Part shown: positions 11,595 to 17,569 of the stretch, in pieces
Position numbering within the stretch: position 1 is the stretch's first letter
Layout: every line of letters begins with the position of its first letter
Assembly: GCA_030611945.1 (NCBI GenBank)
Contig: JAUWOV010000029.1
Span: 1 to 19,881 of the forward strand
From: a bacterium
GTDB lineage: Bacteria > JAHJDO01
Length of the DNA stretch: 19,881 nucleotides
Reading direction: 5' to 3'
Translations under genes and position numbers: made by a program
Notes under the pieces: generated by a model
What the model was told of the DNA's origin: nothing
The model's input: the letters and a program-made list of their open reading frames with translations, nothing else
Databases searched by the model: none

Positions 11595-11618
11595 AATTCG
11601 AATATAGGAGAAGCTATT

Positions 11619-12569
11619 ATGATTAAAATCGGTCTTGTTTCAGCGGCGACGTACGGCCCCGGATATAAAGGGAAAGATGTTCCACGCACACCAGGATCTT
11701 TTCACGGCACAGCGTTTGCGTCCACCTATAACGGATGTGATGAGGAAAAAGCGAAGCAATGGGATTGGACATTCGTGGCGGCCGAAAAGCATATTGAGGA
11801 CGCTAAAGTTGTCAAGGTTTGGGACCCACATAGGGAATGGGCCGAACGACTGGCTGAGGTCTGTTTTATTCCAGAAGTAGCGGAAACTCCTGAAGAATGC
11901 ACAAAAGGAGTTGATGCTGTGGTTATCGTTGATGATGGCTCAGGCACCCAGTGGAAATACGCAGTTGATCCACTCAAACGAGGAATTCCCACATACTGCG
12001 ACAAACCTCTGGCAATGAACGCCAGAGAAGCCAGGCAGGTAGCTAAAGTGGTCAGGAAAACTGGAACTCCCTTCCTGTCAGCAAGTTCGCTGCGATTTGT
12101 GCCGGACATTGTCGCATTAAAAAATGAACTGTCCGACCTTGGTGAAATCAACCTGGCAACTTCGGCGTGCGGCAATGAGTTGATATACTACGGCATCCAC
12201 GCTCTGTCAATGTATTATGGGATTCGCCCCGGGGGCGCTGTATCATGTTTCAATGTCGGACGGTCGAACTGCAACATTGTTCGTGTGCGGTTTGAGAATG
12301 GATGTGATCTGATGCTCATGGTCGGAGAGAGTGAGATGATGTGCGCCGGCTACCAAATCAATCTCTATGGTACCAAAGGCTGGCGAACATTGACGCCAAA
12401 GCTGGACAATCTCTACTTCTATCTTCAGGAGCAATTTATCCAAATGCTTAAGACAGGAAAAGAGCCGGTGCCTGTGGAGGAAGAAGTGGAGGTCATCGCC
12501 GTACTGGAGGCAGGAAAACGCTCTCTGGCTGAAGGCAGGGAAGTAAGCATCAAAGAGGTATTAGCGTAA
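11619..12569 (+). CDS. Divergent Gfo/Idh/MocA-family oxidoreductase (copy 2)
   Basis: This 316-residue protein belongs to the Gfo/Idh/MocA group but is atypical. The usual GxGxxG nucleotide loop is not obvious; the N-terminus reads MIKIGLVSAATYGPGYKGKD and then has an inserted stretch up to about residue 60 before the second strand (AKVVKVWDP). The EKP signature is DKP (Asp128, Lys129, Pro130). A candidate catalytic His is His194 in YYGIHALSMYYG. It is shorter at the C-terminus than its neighbours and ends REVSIKEVLA. The DNA is richer in G+C than the flanking genes (31 of 60 bases in 11941-12000). Ribosome site AGGAG is at 11606-11610. It may be a partner or a differently specific dehydrogenase in the pathway; co-factor use is uncertain. 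Confidence 0.8.
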   Translation: MIKIGLVSAATYGPGYKGKDVPRTPGSFHGTAFASTYNGCDEEKAKQWDWTFVAAEKHIEDAKVVKVWDPHREWAERLAEVCFIPEVAETPEECTKGVDAVVIVDDGSGTQWKYAVDPLKRGIPTYCDKPLAMNAREARQVAKVVRKTGTPFLSASSLRFVPDIVALKNELSDLGEINLATSACGNELIYYGIHALSMYYGIRPGGAVSCFNVGRSNCNIVRVRFENGCDLMLMVGESEMMCAGYQINLYGTKGWRTLTPKLDNLYFYLQEQFIQMLKTGKEPVPVEEEVEVIAVLEAGKRSLAEGREVSIKEVLA

Positions 12570-12590
12570 GTGAAATTATGAGGAGAAGTT

Positions 12591-12923
12591 ATGATTTTTG
12601 ATCACATCGGAGTAATAACGGACGAAAAGAAAGAAGATGAAATATGGGTGGAGGCTACAAGAGTGTGGGTAACTGATTACAAGAAACATCCTTACAAAGT
12701 AGAATGGTTGAGATATGAGCCGGACAGTCCTGTCAAGGGACCAGTCAGAGAAATGGCGCATGTCGCATACCGGGTTGAAAATTTAAAAGAAGCAAGCAAG
12801 GACATGAAGGTACTACTGGAACCCTTTGATGTTGGGTTTGCTGTAGTTGGTTTCTATGAATCAGAGGATGGCGCAGTAATTGAATTTATTGAATACAAAG
12901 AGAAAGGACAAAAAGATGAATGA
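12591..12923 (+). CDS. VOC-superfamily (glyoxalase fold) small protein
   Basis: A 110-residue protein of the glyoxalase/VOC metal-enzyme fold. It begins MIFDHIGV, with His5 as the first metal ligand. The pattern repeats as HVAYRV (His57) with a late GAVIEFIEY (Glu98). Glu39 may complete the site, so a mononuclear metal centre is plausible. VOC proteins include isomerases, epimerases, lyases and dioxygenases. In this operon, between sugar oxidoreductases and an epimerase, a role in isomerising or breaking a keto-sugar intermediate is an inference only. AGGAG at 12581-12585 precedes the start. Its 3' end overlaps the next gene by 8 bases, which suggests coupled translation. Confidence 0.75.
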   Translation: MIFDHIGVITDEKKEDEIWVEATRVWVTDYKKHPYKVEWLRYEPDSPVKGPVREMAHVAYRVENLKEASKDMKVLLEPFDVGFAVVGFYESEDGAVIEFIEYKEKGQKDE

Positions 12924-13911
12924 GATGAAACTAAAAAATATTTTTGTTACAGGAGCCAGCGGCAAGATTGGCAGGGCGCTTCTACCCGAGCTTCTTGCTA
13001 AAGGATACAAGATAAGAGCGCTTGAGTTTGAAGAAGATATAATTGAGTGTAAAGATGTGGAAATAATGCGTGGAGATTTGAGAGATCCTTCTCTTGCCAA
13101 AAAGGCTCTTCAGGATATGGATGCCGTTATTCATTTAGCAAACTGCAAAGAGAACAGAGAGTTGTTTCTGGATACAAATATAAAAGGAACCTTTTATCTT
13201 CTTGATGAAGCAAAAAACTGCGGTCATATAAAACAGTTTATTCAGGCAGGCTCAGACGCAAGAGCAGGCATCTATCACTATCCTCGTCCTTATCCTATTG
13301 ATGAAACATATCCTCACAGCGCTTACCCGGGTTACTATGCTTTTTCCAAGGTTCTTGAGGAGACAATGTGTGAGCAATATACTATTCAGTATAAATTACC
13401 TATCACAGTCGTTCGTTTCTCATGGGTGCATGATGAAGATGACTTCCTTTGTCATATTACGCTAAAAGAGCCTGATTTCGGTGTTCCTGTATGGAAAGAA
13501 CTGGCTAAAACTGCTAAACAGAAAGAGTTCTTTGAAAAAGGCATGAATGGCGTGGCGAAACTTGTTCACCCCGGAGGCAAGCCTGGAATCCGCCATATAG
13601 TAGGCATTAAAGACGTTGTTCAAGGAGTTATTCTTGCAATAGGAAACCCTTCTGCTATTGGGCAAGCATTCACGATCACAGCTCCTTCTGCTTTCAGCTA
13701 CGGCTTTGCTGCTGAGTATATATCAAAAAAACTGAACATTCCTGTAGTAGAGTTTGAGTATGATAAATTCCACGATTTTACTCATACCATCGCAAAGGCA
13801 AGATCAATCCTTGGATATAATCCGGAATACGACATAACGAAAATTATTGATTCTGCAATAGAGTTCAGGAAATCAGGCAAAGAACGTCATCAAACAAAGT
13901 ATATAGGATGA
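12916..13911 (+). CDS. NAD-dependent epimerase/dehydratase (extended SDR)
   Basis: The 331-residue protein is an extended short-chain dehydrogenase. The nucleotide motif is TGASGKIG (residues 12-19), followed by GDLRDPSLAKKAL, AVIHLAN and the catalytic Tyr141-x3-Lys145 (YAFSK). These enzymes epimerise, dehydrate or oxidise nucleotide sugars or free sugars and lactones via NAD. The ATG at 12916 is preferred over an in-frame start at 12880, which would add 12 lysine-rich residues inside the VOC gene; AAAGGA at 12903-12908 supports 12916. It overlaps the VOC stop by 8 bases. The chain is near full length for the family. Because there are no other nucleotide-sugar genes here, a catabolic sugar substrate is more likely than a nucleotide sugar, by inference. 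Confidence 0.88.
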   Translation: MNEMKLKNIFVTGASGKIGRALLPELLAKGYKIRALEFEEDIIECKDVEIMRGDLRDPSLAKKALQDMDAVIHLANCKENRELFLDTNIKGTFYLLDEAKNCGHIKQFIQAGSDARAGIYHYPRPYPIDETYPHSAYPGYYAFSKVLEETMCEQYTIQYKLPITVVRFSWVHDEDDFLCHITLKEPDFGVPVWKELAKTAKQKEFFEKGMNGVAKLVHPGGKPGIRHIVGIKDVVQGVILAIGNPSAIGQAFTITAPSAFSYGFAAEYISKKLNIPVVEFEYDKFHDFTHTIAKARSILGYNPEYDITKIIDSAIEFRKSGKERHQTKYIG

Positions 13912-13929
13912 GCAAATACATGGAAAATT

Positions 13930-14029
13930 CTAAATCCGAATATCTAAATTCTAAACAAATACAAATAACCAAAATCCAAAACAGTTTAGAACATTTGTAT
14001 TTAGAATTTTAGATTTGTTTAGGATTTGT
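13930..14029. repeat. A/T-rich imperfect inverted repeat (approximately 100 bases)
   Basis: The left arm (13930-13966, TAAATCC then TCTAAATTCTAAACAAATACAAAT-like) pairs imperfectly with the right arm (13993-14027, ATTTGTATTTAGAATTTTAGA then GGATTT). The loop is about 26 bases. It almost fills the 135-base gap between the epimerase stop and the start of the third oxidoreductase. The tandem TAAATTC/TAAATCC flavour resembles small dispersed palindromic repeats that I recall from several environmental bacterial genomes, but only one copy is present here. It is too poor in G+C to be a good intrinsic terminator. It may mark the boundary of the original operon. Confidence 0.7.
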
Positions 14030-14046
14030 GGATAGAGGAGAAGAAA

Positions 14047-15057
14047 ATGGATAAACTGAGATATGGTGTAATAGGTACAGGCTGGTTTGGGGAAATACAT
14101 ATTGAAACGTTATCAACTTTACCAAATGTAGATGTGGTAGGTATATCCCGGAGGTCTATAGAACCGTTAAAAGAAACTGCAAGAAAACATAATATCCCAA
14201 ACATCTATACTGACTATAAAGAGTTATTAGCGAACGAAGAAATAAATGCGGTAAGCATTACTACTCATTTTGATAATCACTTACAGCCTGCAATAGATGC
14301 GCTAAAAGCTGGGAAACACGTTTTTTTAGAGAAACCTATGGCAAAAAGCGCAGCTGAATGTGATGAAATCATCAAAGCTGTTCGCTCAACGGATAAACTA
14401 TTTATGGTAGGTCATGTCTGCCGTTTTGATCCCCGCGTAAGTCTTGCTAAAGAAGCTATCCAACAGGGACGTATCGGCAATATCGTCTCAATGCACGCAA
14501 CGCGGAACTTACCGGCAAGTGTCGGCGCAGCCAATCTTGATAAAATTTCAGCGCTTATGGGCGACGGCATTCACGATACTGACCTGATGTTATGGTTCAC
14601 AAAAAGCAAAGTAAAGACAGTATACGCGCAGACCGTTCGTGTAGGAGATTTCAAGTACCCGGATATCGGCTGGGCAATGTACAGATTTGACAGCGGCGCA
14701 GTTGGAGTGATTGAGTCTATCTGGTCGCTCCCCGATACTACAGCTTTCACCATTGATGCCCGCATGGAGATTATTGGAACTAAAGGAGCTATTTATATAG
14801 ATGCGGGGAATGCGGGTCTGACAATCACCGACAGTATGGGTAGTAAAAAGCCTGATACGGGATATTGGCCGGAACTTTTTGGAAAGCGAGTTGGAGCTTT
14901 GCGAAACGAACTCAGCTATTTTATCAACTGTATCAGAACAGGTAGAACCCCTGATGTGATTACTCCTGAGGAGTCTGCAGAAGCAGTAAGAGTAATGGAA
15001 GCCGCTGAAGAATCTGCAGCATCGGGAAAGGTAGTGAAAATTGTGAAAGAATTTTAG
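14047..15057 (+). CDS. Gfo/Idh/MocA-family oxidoreductase (copy 3), inositol/sugar dehydrogenase-like
   Basis: A 336-residue canonical member. The dinucleotide loop is GTGWFG (Gly10, Gly12, Gly15), EKP is at Glu95-Lys96-Pro97, and the catalytic motif GDGIHDTD has His176 and Asp179. The family oxidises sugars, myo-inositol or related polyols with NAD(P). The ATG at 14047 is supported by GAGGAG at 14035-14040; an upstream TTG at 14026 would start inside the inverted repeat and lacks a ribosome site. The gene is separated from the epimerase by that repeat, so it could be a later addition to the operon. Its final codons (VKEF and stop) lie in the left copy of the 21-base direct repeat. No lesion is seen. 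Confidence 0.9.
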   Translation: MDKLRYGVIGTGWFGEIHIETLSTLPNVDVVGISRRSIEPLKETARKHNIPNIYTDYKELLANEEINAVSITTHFDNHLQPAIDALKAGKHVFLEKPMAKSAAECDEIIKAVRSTDKLFMVGHVCRFDPRVSLAKEAIQQGRIGNIVSMHATRNLPASVGAANLDKISALMGDGIHDTDLMLWFTKSKVKTVYAQTVRVGDFKYPDIGWAMYRFDSGAVGVIESIWSLPDTTAFTIDARMEIIGTKGAIYIDAGNAGLTITDSMGSKKPDTGYWPELFGKRVGALRNELSYFINCIRTGRTPDVITPEESAEAVRVMEAAEESAASGKVVKIVKEF

Positions 15058-15061
15058 GAAT
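15041..15061. repeat. Left copy of 21-base direct repeat
   Basis: The segment beginning TTGTGAAAG and ending TTTTAGGAAT is identical, base for base, to 16461-16481. The match stops on both sides (A versus C before it, A versus T after it). This copy holds the last codons and the TAG stop of the third oxidoreductase. Confidence 0.9.
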
Positions 15062-15079
15062 AGGTCATATTCTTTAGCT

Positions 15080-16372
15080 TTAAATTAAATAGAACGGAAC
15101 GAATGTAAACCCGTTTTTTTGTTTTAACATCTTCTTGTTAGCCACAATGGCTGTTTTGCTCTTATACTTCCTTGAAAAAGAAACCATGCCTGCAGGCAAG
15201 TTATCCGTTTCTTTTAGTTTCACCTCCAATGGAAGGATATTCTCTTCATCAATCACAAAATCTACTTCAGAGCCATATTTTAATCTCCAGAATTTTATGT
15301 TCTCCACGGTTTCTACTCTCTTCAATAAGTTCTTAAATACCACATTTTCAATAAGAGCGCCGGCATCAACTCGTTCATCAATCTTTCTAAAATCGTTAAT
15401 AATTCGGTTGCGCAGACCAATGTCATAGAAATAGACTTTTGGCATCTTCACAATTTCTTTTTTCTTATTAGTAAAATACGGGCTGATAAACCTACATACA
15501 TAAGTACTCTCTAAAATGGAAAAATATTTCTCAACTGTCTGACGGGCTATTCCTATTTCTTTGCTAATATCCTGCGCATTAATTAAATTTCCAATATTCA
15601 AGGATAGAAGTTTTACAATTTTGTTAAATGCTGTTATGTTTTCTAAAGAAAAAATGGCATTAATATCCTTTCTTATGTAAGAATTATAAATATCCTCCAG
15701 GTATTTCTTTTTTTGAGCATGTTCATTAAGCATTACTACAGCAGGATAGCCTCCAAAAAGAGCATATTCAAAGTAATGTTTTATAAGCTTGTGATGAGAG
15801 ATATCAGATATGGGCTTAAGTTGGCTAAAATCGCTATGCTTATCTATTAAGTCTTTTAATTCCCTTTCGTTCTGAAAAATAAGGTATTCTCTAAAGTCAA
15901 GAGAATAAACTGCAAAGGTTATTTTTCTGCCGACAAGGGAATCTTTAAATTTCTTCTTAATTGTTAAAGCTGACGAACCTGTGACAAATATCTTTATTCC
16001 ATCTGAATGGTGGTCAACAAGAAGTTTTAATATATTGGTGGGATTATCTAAATATTGTATTTCATCTATAAAAATAAATTTTTTGCTATTTCCAGGGCTC
16101 TGTTCGCAGATATAATCAAGAAGCCTGTCTGCGCCGGCATTAAGCAATTCAAGATTATCAATCCTTTCTAAGTCCAGATAAAATATGTCTTTCTCAGCTA
16201 TCCCCTTATTTACCGCCAAATACTGGATGAGCAGATAGAGCAAAGAGGTTTTCCCAACCTGCCTTGAACCAAGTAGGATAAGCGCTTCTTTTTCAGGTAT
16301 CCATTTTATTATCTGCGGCAGTATATTTCTTTCAATTAAGCTTTTATTAAGAATCTGTGTAATATCAGACAT
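15080..16372 (-). CDS. AAA (AAA_14)/DUF4143 ATPase with PD-(D/E)xK-like C-terminus
   Basis: A 430-residue protein of the common prokaryotic AAA_14 plus DUF4143 family. Walker A is GSRQVGKT (residues 35-42). Walker B is FIFIDEIQ (Asp103, Glu104), and a sensor-like FVTGSSA sits at about 129-135. A winged-helix segment follows (INAQDISKEIGIARQTVEKYFSIL, about 264-287). The DUF4143 end carries Glu342, EVDFVID (Asp371) and PLEVKLK (Glu383, Lys385), which resembles a PD-(D/E)xK nuclease core. The molecular role of this family is unsettled; many copies behave as mobile or defence-like accessory genes. Here it stands alone, opposite in strand to the upstream operon, with its own promoter, and between 21-base direct repeats. 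The ATG at 16372 has only a weak GAGAAAA ribosome site. No frameshift is visible, so it looks intact. Confidence 0.88.
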   Translation of the reverse strand: MSDITQILNKSLIERNILPQIIKWIPEKEALILLGSRQVGKTSLLYLLIQYLAVNKGIAEKDIFYLDLERIDNLELLNAGADRLLDYICEQSPGNSKKFIFIDEIQYLDNPTNILKLLVDHHSDGIKIFVTGSSALTIKKKFKDSLVGRKITFAVYSLDFREYLIFQNERELKDLIDKHSDFSQLKPISDISHHKLIKHYFEYALFGGYPAVVMLNEHAQKKKYLEDIYNSYIRKDINAIFSLENITAFNKIVKLLSLNIGNLINAQDISKEIGIARQTVEKYFSILESTYVCRFISPYFTNKKKEIVKMPKVYFYDIGLRNRIINDFRKIDERVDAGALIENVVFKNLLKRVETVENIKFWRLKYGSEVDFVIDEENILPLEVKLKETDNLPAGMVSFSRKYKSKTAIVANKKMLKQKNGFTFVPFYLI

Positions 16373-16395
16373 TTTAGTTTTCTCAATTTAGTTTA

Positions 16396-16428
16396 ACTAT
16401 ATTATAAGATGTTATTAAATATAGTCAA
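16396..16428 (-). promoter_or_regulatory. Promoter of the ATPase gene with overlapping inverted repeat
   Basis: Read on the - strand there is TTGACT (16423-16428), a 16-base spacer and a perfect TATAAT (16401-16406), placing a start of transcription about 20 bases before the ATG. An inverted repeat, ACTATATT (16396-16403) and AATATAGT (16418-16425), has its arm centres 22 bases apart and overlaps both boxes. It could be a two-turn operator, possibly for autoregulation. Confidence 0.65.
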
Positions 16429-16444
16429 TATTTATTTTGCCTAC

Positions 16445-17569
16445 TCACTTACCTGTGATCTTGTGAAAGAATTTTAGGAATTCATTAAATTGACCTCTTT
16501 TATCAAACTTCTCTTTCATAAGCTTACGAGCGTTTTTGCCAATCTGCAGGTAATTGTTCTTATCTGAGGAGAGTTTGGCGATCGCGTTTATAAGTTCGTT
16601 TTTGTTCCCTGGTTCTATCATATAGCCTGTTTCTCCATCAAAAACAACTTCAGGCACTCCTGCTAATTTTGACGCTATAACAGGCAGTCCCATAGACATT
16701 GCTTCAAGCAGGACATTTGGCAGCCCTTCCTTATAGAGACTTGGAAGAGCTAATATATCAATTCTTTCAAAAATATAGTTTGGTTCGTTGGTAAATGGGA
16801 AAAATGTTACGTTTTTTTCAATATTCATTGTTCTGACTTTTGCTTTCAACATTTCTTCATCCGGACCATCCCCGACAAGCATTAAGTGAATATCAGGGAA
16901 TGATCCATCTGCAAGCTTTGCGACAGCTTCGAGAAGAAGCATCTGTCCTTTTCTTTCTTCAAAAGAGCCTACTGAGCCCAGAACCGGACCGACAGTGCTA
17001 CAAAGAGAATAACGCCTCAAGGCTTCAGCTTTGTTTTTATCTGATGAAGTAAAACGGTCAACTTCTGTTCCCTGATAGATGAGTTCAACCTTTTCAGAAG
17101 GGATTTTATAATTATCAATAAGATACTTGCGTGTGAAGTCTGTGATACTGATGATTTTTACATTAATGGAGTCATCCGGAAGATAAAATTTCCTCAGATA
17201 TTCAGGTACAATAGTTCCTGTTTTGGGGATAAGAACTGTGTCAAGACCAGCTTGTTTTATACATTCAGCGCCAAAAACAGCGCAGTGAAATCCATTTCTC
17301 GGAGGGTGCACAGTACAAACAGCAACATCACAATTATTCAGACCCTCAGTCCAGATCCTTTTAAATTCATCGCCTTTGGATACAACTCCGTCCCAGTCAT
17401 ATCCAATAACATGCGCTCCTGCATTAGAGCATTCTATAGCTACCCAGCTGTCCAGAGGCGCAATAACAGTAACATCCTCTCCTTTTTTAAGAAAAAACTT
17501 GACCGCTTCAGAAACCCAGATTTGGGTCCCGCCATGAAGATGTGTATCTTCAATAAATCCGATATGCAT
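16445..17569 (-). CDS. GT4-family glycosyltransferase
   Basis: A 374-residue GT-B retaining glycosyltransferase. The N-terminal acceptor domain begins MHIGFIEDTHLHGGTQIWVSE, where GGTQ (13-16) is the usual glycine loop. The donor domain has GSVGSFEERKGQ, LMLVGDGPDE and the EX7E signature Glu281 to Glu289 (EGLPNVLLE), followed by PVIASKLAGVPEVV. It transfers a sugar from a nucleotide-sugar donor to an unknown acceptor, probably in the cytoplasm or at the inner face of the membrane. It starts 5 bases after the stop of the larger glycosyltransferase, with AAGGG as ribosome site, so the two form an operon. Its last residues (ITGK) and stop fall inside the repeat-bracketed segment, so its C-terminus may have been altered by insertion. 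Confidence 0.88.
   Translation of the reverse strand: MHIGFIEDTHLHGGTQIWVSEAVKFFLKKGEDVTVIAPLDSWVAIECSNAGAHVIGYDWDGVVSKGDEFKRIWTEGLNNCDVAVCTVHPPRNGFHCAVFGAECIKQAGLDTVLIPKTGTIVPEYLRKFYLPDDSINVKIISITDFTRKYLIDNYKIPSEKVELIYQGTEVDRFTSSDKNKAEALRRYSLCSTVGPVLGSVGSFEERKGQMLLLEAVAKLADGSFPDIHLMLVGDGPDEEMLKAKVRTMNIEKNVTFFPFTNEPNYIFERIDILALPSLYKEGLPNVLLEAMSMGLPVIASKLAGVPEVVFDGETGYMIEPGNKNELINAIAKLSSDKNNYLQIGKNARKLMKEKFDKRGQFNEFLKFFHKITGK
16461..16481. repeat. Right copy of 21-base direct repeat
   Basis: Perfect copy of 15041-15061, located in the 3' coding end of the GT4 gene (codons around EFLKFFHK). The last few codons and the stop of that gene lie on the inner side of the repeat, that is, within the region bracketed by the two copies. 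Confidence 0.9.

What the first reader, a model, noticed from the sequence alone, without database searches (positions are those of the whole stretch)
15041..16481. Lone AAA/DUF4143 ATPase gene bracketed by perfect 21-base direct repeats
The same 21 bases occur at 15041-15061 and 16461-16481, with mismatches on both outer and inner sides. Between them is only an ATPase gene with its own promoter, on the opposite strand to the upstream operon. A chance 21-base match in 20 kb of A/T-rich DNA is unlikely (roughly one in several thousand by a hand estimate). This fits insertion with target duplication or recombination at a short site. One detail argues against a simple insertion: if one copy were ancestral, the glycosyltransferase frame would have read on without a stop far into the oxidoreductase gene. 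The insert may therefore have supplied the present glycosyltransferase stop. I know of no transposase in this family, so it would be a cargo or a non-classical mobile unit.
Basis: partly seen in the sequence, partly recalled or inferred. Interest (0 to 1): 0.75.

Follow-up and report, generated by a model that had tools for sequence, protein, structure and literature searches.

The report
Single-gene insertion with duplicated target ends
A lone ATPase gene of a very common candidate phage-defence family sits between two copies of the same 21 bases, and comparison with sister species shows that genes of this family (and a few unrelated lone genes) enter genomes as single-gene units that often copy 20-180 bases of the spot where they land.

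Summary
The perfect 21-base direct repeat (15041-15061, 16461-16481) is real and beyond chance. The ATPase between the copies is an AAA_14/DUF4143 protein with an intact PD-(D/E)XK motif (PADLOC "PDC-S01"). Three same-genus genomes keep the glycosyltransferase, its stop and the right copy, with no ATPase there. So the right copy and that stop are ancestral; the left copy is the extra one and now codes a four-residue extension of the oxidoreductase.

The pattern recurs. About 15 of 119 genes of this family carry a flanking direct repeat of 20-181 bases, usually 80-195 bases before the start and within 35 after the stop. Two sister loci show true empty sites with one copy (39 and 177 bases). One 95% identical unit occupies two different sites. 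In 822 kb from the genus, 6 of 20 family members but 2 of 683 other genes are so flanked.

Best reading: a single-gene insertion with target duplication, followed here by a second rearrangement that replaced the left flank. Lone Fic genes and an esterase gene show the same duplication, which argues against the ATPase driving it. The mechanism is inferred, not shown. I found no report of this.

The parts
15041..15061 (+). Left copy of the 21-base direct repeat; the extra copy. It codes the added C-terminal residues (VKEF and stop) of the oxidoreductase
   Evidence: six oxidoreductase homologs end at residue 334 of the query or within one residue of it
16461..16481 (+). Right copy of the repeat; ancestral, part of the 3' end of the glycosyltransferase coding sequence
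   Evidence: same sequence with one mismatch in G001, G002 and G004, with the same DNA on both sides
15080..16372 (-). AAA_14/DUF4143 ATPase (COG1373, PADLOC PDC-S01), 430 aa, with Walker A/B, HTH-like region and PD-(D/E)XK residues E342, E369-x-D371, E383-x-K385
16401..16428 (-). Promoter-like site of the ATPase (TTGACT, 16 bases, TATAAT), inside the inserted unit
   Evidence: read directly from the sequence
15062..16442 (.). Inferred inserted unit: about 70 bases upstream, the ORF, 18 bases after the stop. The right boundary is approximate
   Evidence: left edge = end of the left repeat copy; right edge = where similarity to relatives stops
16443..16460 (-). Native tail and stop codon of the glycosyltransferase, conserved in relatives; shows the original duplication was probably longer than 21 bases
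16445..17569 (-). Glycosyltransferase (group 1), target gene whose 3' end was duplicated
14041..15057 (+). GFO/IDH/MocA oxidoreductase, now fused at its 3' end to the left repeat copy

Best explanation
The ATPase gene entered this locus as a single-gene unit (short promoter region plus ORF, ending about 18 bases after the stop) at the 3' end of the glycosyltransferase, and the event duplicated at least 21, probably about 36 or more, bases of that gene's end. The glycosyltransferase side is intact and native. On the other side the duplicated copy lost its outer part when the DNA left of it was replaced by the oxidoreductase operon, in a second event or the same one. Shown: both copies, the ancestral state of the right copy and of the stop, absence of the ATPase beside this gene in relatives, and the same kind of duplication around other family members with true empty sites. 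Inferred: that this locus arose the same way, and how the duplication forms. I think insertion through DNA repair is most likely: either fill-in of a widely staggered break, or recombination with homology at one end and illegitimate joining at the other. The gene would then be cargo and not the driver.
For: Repeat real and unique. Relatives hold the glycosyltransferase with native tail and stop but three different downstream neighbours and no ATPase. Oxidoreductase homologs end where the left copy begins. Family pattern: 14 of 82 genes with non-repetitive flanking repeats, 20-181 bases; 21 of 82 scoring 34 or more against 4 of 973 mismatched flank pairs and 0 of 60 control ORFs. True empty sites with one copy: 39 bases (G004:C54 against G002:C42) and 177 bases (G004:C24 against G002:C101). 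Third site with about 40 bases, where G002 lacks the gene. One 95% identical unit in two sites, homology ending 86 bases before the start and 17-18 after the stop, while flanks are 84-90% identical. Genus scan: 6 of 20 family members against 2 of 683 other genes (Fisher p 6e-9); the two others are a Fic gene and an esterase gene.
Against: No empty site of this very locus exists in the data: no genome joins this oxidoreductase to this glycosyltransferase. The left flank needs a second event. Some insertions of the family show no duplication (G002:C101 replaces about 23 bases, G002:C97 is nearly blunt). In 37 further, weaker homologs only one clear repeat was found, and in six plasmid-borne homologs none. 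Repetitive cases were excluded by eye.
Confidence: 0.7

Rival explanations
1. The ATPase protein moves its own gene. Its PD-(D/E)XK nuclease domain cuts or nicks the target with a wide, variable stagger, the AAA+ and HTH parts choose the DNA, and fill-in makes the duplication. PDC-S01 would then be a selfish mobile gene and not, or not only, a defence gene.
For: Single ORF in the unit; intact nuclease motif in nearly all of 82 homologs; AAA+ fold of the initiator/clamp-loader type; tight unit boundaries; 6 of the 8 repeat-flanked genes in 822 kb are this family.
Against: Lone Fic genes (about 4 of 29) and an esterase gene show the same duplications, so the ATPase is not needed. No conserved ends among units. 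Some insertions have no duplication.
Confidence: 0.17
2. Homology-facilitated illegitimate recombination (one sub-form of the repair reading above, listed apart because it makes its own prediction): incoming DNA carried the ATPase joined to a homologous piece of the target gene from another strain; one end recombined, the other joined illegitimately, leaving recipient and donor copies of the same piece.
For: Explains variable lengths, small deletions at some sites and imperfect copies. Differences between copies fall mainly at third codon positions (7 of 9 in L124, 11 of 16 in L147). The mechanism is known in several bacteria (PMC3240628).
Against: Does not by itself explain tight single-gene boundaries or the same unit at two different sites. 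Copies at L124 are closer to each other than to the sister species. The window copies are identical.
Confidence: 0.3
3. An unidentified transposase or integrase acts in trans on single-gene units.
For: Unrelated cargoes (ATPase, Fic, esterase) with similar geometry.
Against: No terminal inverted repeats, no fixed duplication length and no shared site.
Confidence: 0.1
4. Chance or independent origin of two identical 21-base stretches, or an assembly artefact.
For: Some such repeat may turn up when very many windows are read; 21 is a common assembly word size (general knowledge; the 21-base length itself is).
Against: Simulations give at most 17. The left copy begins exactly where the oxidoreductase's homologs end. 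The pattern recurs in other genomes with lengths of 20-181. A false join through a shared word does not by itself create a second copy.
Confidence: 0.05

Closest known systems
COG1373 / AAA_14-DUF4143 ATPases, PADLOC PDC-S01
   Same: Family membership by profile (E 1e-85 to PDC-S01, DUF4143 132 bits); ATPase fused to PD-(D/E)XK; single gene; patchy, often transferred (PMC12988326, PMC10782964)
   Different: No paper found describes target duplications or single-gene insertion for this family
Insertion sequences and other transposons with target site duplication
   Same: Direct repeat made at insertion, single copy at the empty site
   Different: No transposase, no terminal inverted repeats; duplication length varies from none to 181 bases
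Homology-facilitated illegitimate recombination (PMC3240628)
   Same: Can leave a duplicated, slightly diverged piece of the target gene, or a small deletion
   Different: Does not predict units cut tightly around one gene or the same unit at different sites
Gene cassettes / site-specific integration at gene ends
   Same: Single gene, inserted at gene ends, neighbours kept intact
   Different: Each insertion has a different repeat; the 21-mer occurs only at this locus in the genome

Membership tests
AAA_14/DUF4143 ATPase (COG1373, PDC-S01) | AAA_14 and DUF4143 domains above curated cut-offs; PDC-S01 profile | tested here: met
AAA_14/DUF4143 ATPase (COG1373, PDC-S01) | PD-(D/E)XK catalytic residues | tested here: met
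   E342, E369, D371, E383, K385 present; conserved in 82 homologs at 83-100%. The nuclease part of the model is of low confidence
AAA_14/DUF4143 ATPase (COG1373, PDC-S01) | anti-phage activity | not testable with these tools
   PDCs are described as unvalidated in PMC12988326
Classical transposon / insertion sequence | transposase gene inside the unit | tested here: not met
   only the ATPase ORF lies in the unit
Classical transposon / insertion sequence | terminal inverted repeats at the unit's ends | tested here: not met
   no inverted repeat pair joins the two ends; no shared ends among units
Classical transposon / insertion sequence | target duplication of fixed length | tested here: not met
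   39 and 177 bases at two resolved sites of one genome, others none
Insertion with target duplication (general) | single copy of the repeat at an empty site | tested here: inconclusive
   met at two sister loci; no empty site found for the window locus itself
Site-specific integration | common core site | tested here: not met
   the 21-mer is unique to this locus; all repeats differ
Homology-facilitated illegitimate recombination | donor-derived homologous flank on one side | tested here: inconclusive
   third-position bias in two repeats, but the window copies are identical and no donor was found

The most novel reading that the evidence does not exclude
A so far undescribed process inserts single promoter-plus-ORF units, most often PDC-S01 ATPases, at gene ends with 20-180-base target duplications. 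In its strongest form the ATPase-nuclease drives its own spread, so that one of the commonest 'defence candidates' of prokaryotes is a selfish mobile gene with a new mode of transposition.
Probability: 0.18. Interest if true: 0.9.

Novelty: new variant of a known kind. Interest (0 to 1): 0.62.

Why it matters
PDC-S01 is reported as the fourth most common putative defence system in prokaryotes and is unvalidated (PMC12988326). Showing that its genes sit as single-gene insertions with long, variable target duplications gives a direct handle on how such lone genes spread, and bears on whether their abundance reflects defence or mobility. The repeats mark insertion points to the base, so the process can be tested by comparing strains. 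Scanning for flanking gene-end duplications could also reveal other recently inserted lone genes.

Tried and rejected
Simple one-step target duplication at this locus: rejected, because the right copy has native DNA on both sides and the left flank is not native. A common core site: rejected. Conserved unit ends or inverted repeats: none seen. Self-mobilisation as the leading view: dropped after the Fic control and the whole-gene scan showed the same duplication around unrelated lone genes. Repetitive flanks (L167, L176, L178, L179, L180, L317) were set aside by eye as tandem or dispersed repeats. Plasmid homologs (Runella, Lactobacillus, Moraxella, Treponema, Methanomethylovorans, Bacteroides): no repeats; two plasmid backbone searches were not followed to an empty site; E. 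coli has no near relative of the Moraxella homolog. Genus search for an empty site at a ribosomal S7 insertion: no other genome in that genus. A first polarity count for L124 was misaligned by one base and was redone.

Full report
1. Observation. The 21 bases TTGTGAAAGAATTTTAGGAAT occur exactly at 15041-15061 and 16461-16481. They occur nowhere else in the 1.66-Mb genome even with three mismatches. Shuffles of the window never give two matches, and simulated windows of the same composition have longest direct repeats of 12-17 bases. Only the ATPase gene lies wholly between the copies.

2. The gene. The 430-aa protein has AAA_14 and DUF4143 domains and matches PADLOC's single-gene phage-defence candidate PDC-S01 at E 1e-85. 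In 82 homologs the Walker motifs and the residues E342, E369-x-D371 and E383-x-K385 are conserved, a PD-(D/E)XK pattern. A model with pTM 0.74 resembles AAA+ proteins such as Orc/Cdc6 and clamp loaders in solved structures, with low whole-chain TM-scores; its nuclease part is of low confidence. PDC-S01 is reported as the fourth most common putative defence in prokaryotes, an ATPase fused to PD-(D/E)XK, and unvalidated (PMC12988326). COG1373 also appears in a list of transferred gut genes (PMC10782964).

3. Which copy is original. Three genomes of the same genus hold the glycosyltransferase at 88-90% identity, with the right copy (one mismatch), the native tail and the stop. Each has something different downstream, never the ATPase. 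So the right copy and the stop are ancestral. Six homologs of the oxidoreductase end at or within one residue of the point where the left copy starts; in the window the gene runs on into the left copy and gains VKEF. So the left copy is the foreign one. As the native tail stands only on the right, the original duplication was probably longer (about 36 bases or more, inference) and its outer part was lost when the left flank changed.

4. The same pattern elsewhere. The genome has 11 DUF4143 matches. Others of them are also bracketed by direct repeats of 20, 15 and 14 exact bases. Over 82 family genes from this and other genomes, 21 have flanking repeats scoring 34 or more, against 4 of 973 mismatched flank pairs and, in a closely similar test, 0 of 60 control ORFs. 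Leaving out seven repetitive cases by eye, 14 remain, of 20-181 bases. In most of them the upstream copy lies 79-194 bases before the start and the downstream copy within 35 bases of the stop; L153, L186 and L183 depart from this. A second set of 37 weaker homologs gave one clear case, L289, with the same geometry. The rate is therefore about 15 in 119 and uneven among lineages.

5. Empty sites. At G004:C54 an ATPase is flanked by two copies of a 39-base piece that G002 has once. At G004:C24 the first 177 bases of an amidohydrolase-like gene are duplicated around the ATPase, and G002 has promoter and gene start once. In the window's genome, contig C108, the last 39 or so bases of a gene are duplicated, and G002 lacks the ATPase there. 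In another genome the ATPase sits at the end of the ribosomal protein S7 gene with a 75-base duplication.

6. Movement. A 95% identical ATPase unit lies after a hydrolase gene in the window's genome (C26) and before the same gene in G002, while the flanks are 84-90% identical. Homology ends 86 bases before the start and 17-18 after the stop. G004 has neither copy. A second pair, G001 and G002, is also 95% identical in different places. The C26 copy shows the same oddity as the window: its left repeat lacks the native left flank.

7. Not always a duplication. In a comparison of about 360 kb each of G004 and G002 (about 96 kb in aligned pieces of at least 250 bases), 3 of 17 insertions were lone ATPases. 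One had the 39-base repeat, one replaced about 23 bases, one was nearly blunt. The contigs were partly chosen because they hold such genes, so the 3 of 17 is not a genome-wide rate. Six plasmid homologs had no repeat.

8. Not only this family. As a control I examined lone Fic genes of the same genomes: about 4 of 29 carry similar repeats (32-64 bases). Among about 700 genes in 822 kb of the genus, eight are flanked by repeats: six of 20 ATPases, one Fic gene and one esterase gene. The duplication is thus a mark of lone inserted genes, most often this ATPase, and the ATPase is not required for it.

9. Mechanism. Shown: insertion of single genes with variable target duplication in this genus, and the unequal surroundings of the two copies at the window locus. 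Inferred: that repair of widely staggered breaks, or recombination with homology at one end only (described in PMC3240628), makes them. Differences between copies fall mostly at third codon positions in two cases (7 of 9, 11 of 16), which fits donor-derived flanks; perfect copies such as the window's fit fresh duplication. I cannot decide. Self-movement by the ATPase remains possible but is now the less likely view.

10. Novelty. Searches for DUF4143, COG1373, PDC-S01 and related terms found no account of such insertions. The library lacks most subscription journals, so this is not proof of novelty.

Noticed in passing
window 13915-14040: An A/T-rich, hairpin-forming dispersed repeat just after the epimerase gene; dozens of related copies on both strands in same-genus genomes G002 and G004.
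   Followed up: partly
L084 1-137 and 5936-6029: Other dispersed repeats of the genus, several at contig ends in G004, so they probably break assemblies.
   Followed up: no
L307 1144-2262 (G003:C123): A lone Fic gene just downstream of what looks like the 3' end of a tRNA gene, flanked by a 64-base, 98% direct repeat that starts with GCCA.
   Followed up: partly
G002:C140 7692-8738 (L240): An abhydrolase/acetyl-xylan-esterase-like gene inserted after an HtrA-like gene, with a 60-base duplication of that gene's end.
   Followed up: partly
G002:C140 19100-19571 and 20927-21401: Single-gene insertions of about 470 bases relative to G004: a four-helix-bundle-like and a GxxExxY-like small protein, named by eye, without clear repeats.
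   Followed up: no
G001:C32 (L076) against window 11609-14183: The oxidoreductase operon is shared with G001 in the same order, but with insertions of 1.2, 6.2 and 1.9 kb between genes.
   Followed up: no
G042, G047: Genomes with 17 and 32 matches to this ATPase family, an unusual load for genomes of about 2 Mb.
   Followed up: partly
L085 4338, L126 and L145: The ATPase reading frame ends at the junction and its stop codon is supplied by the target DNA, so the inserted units end at or before the stop.
   Followed up: partly
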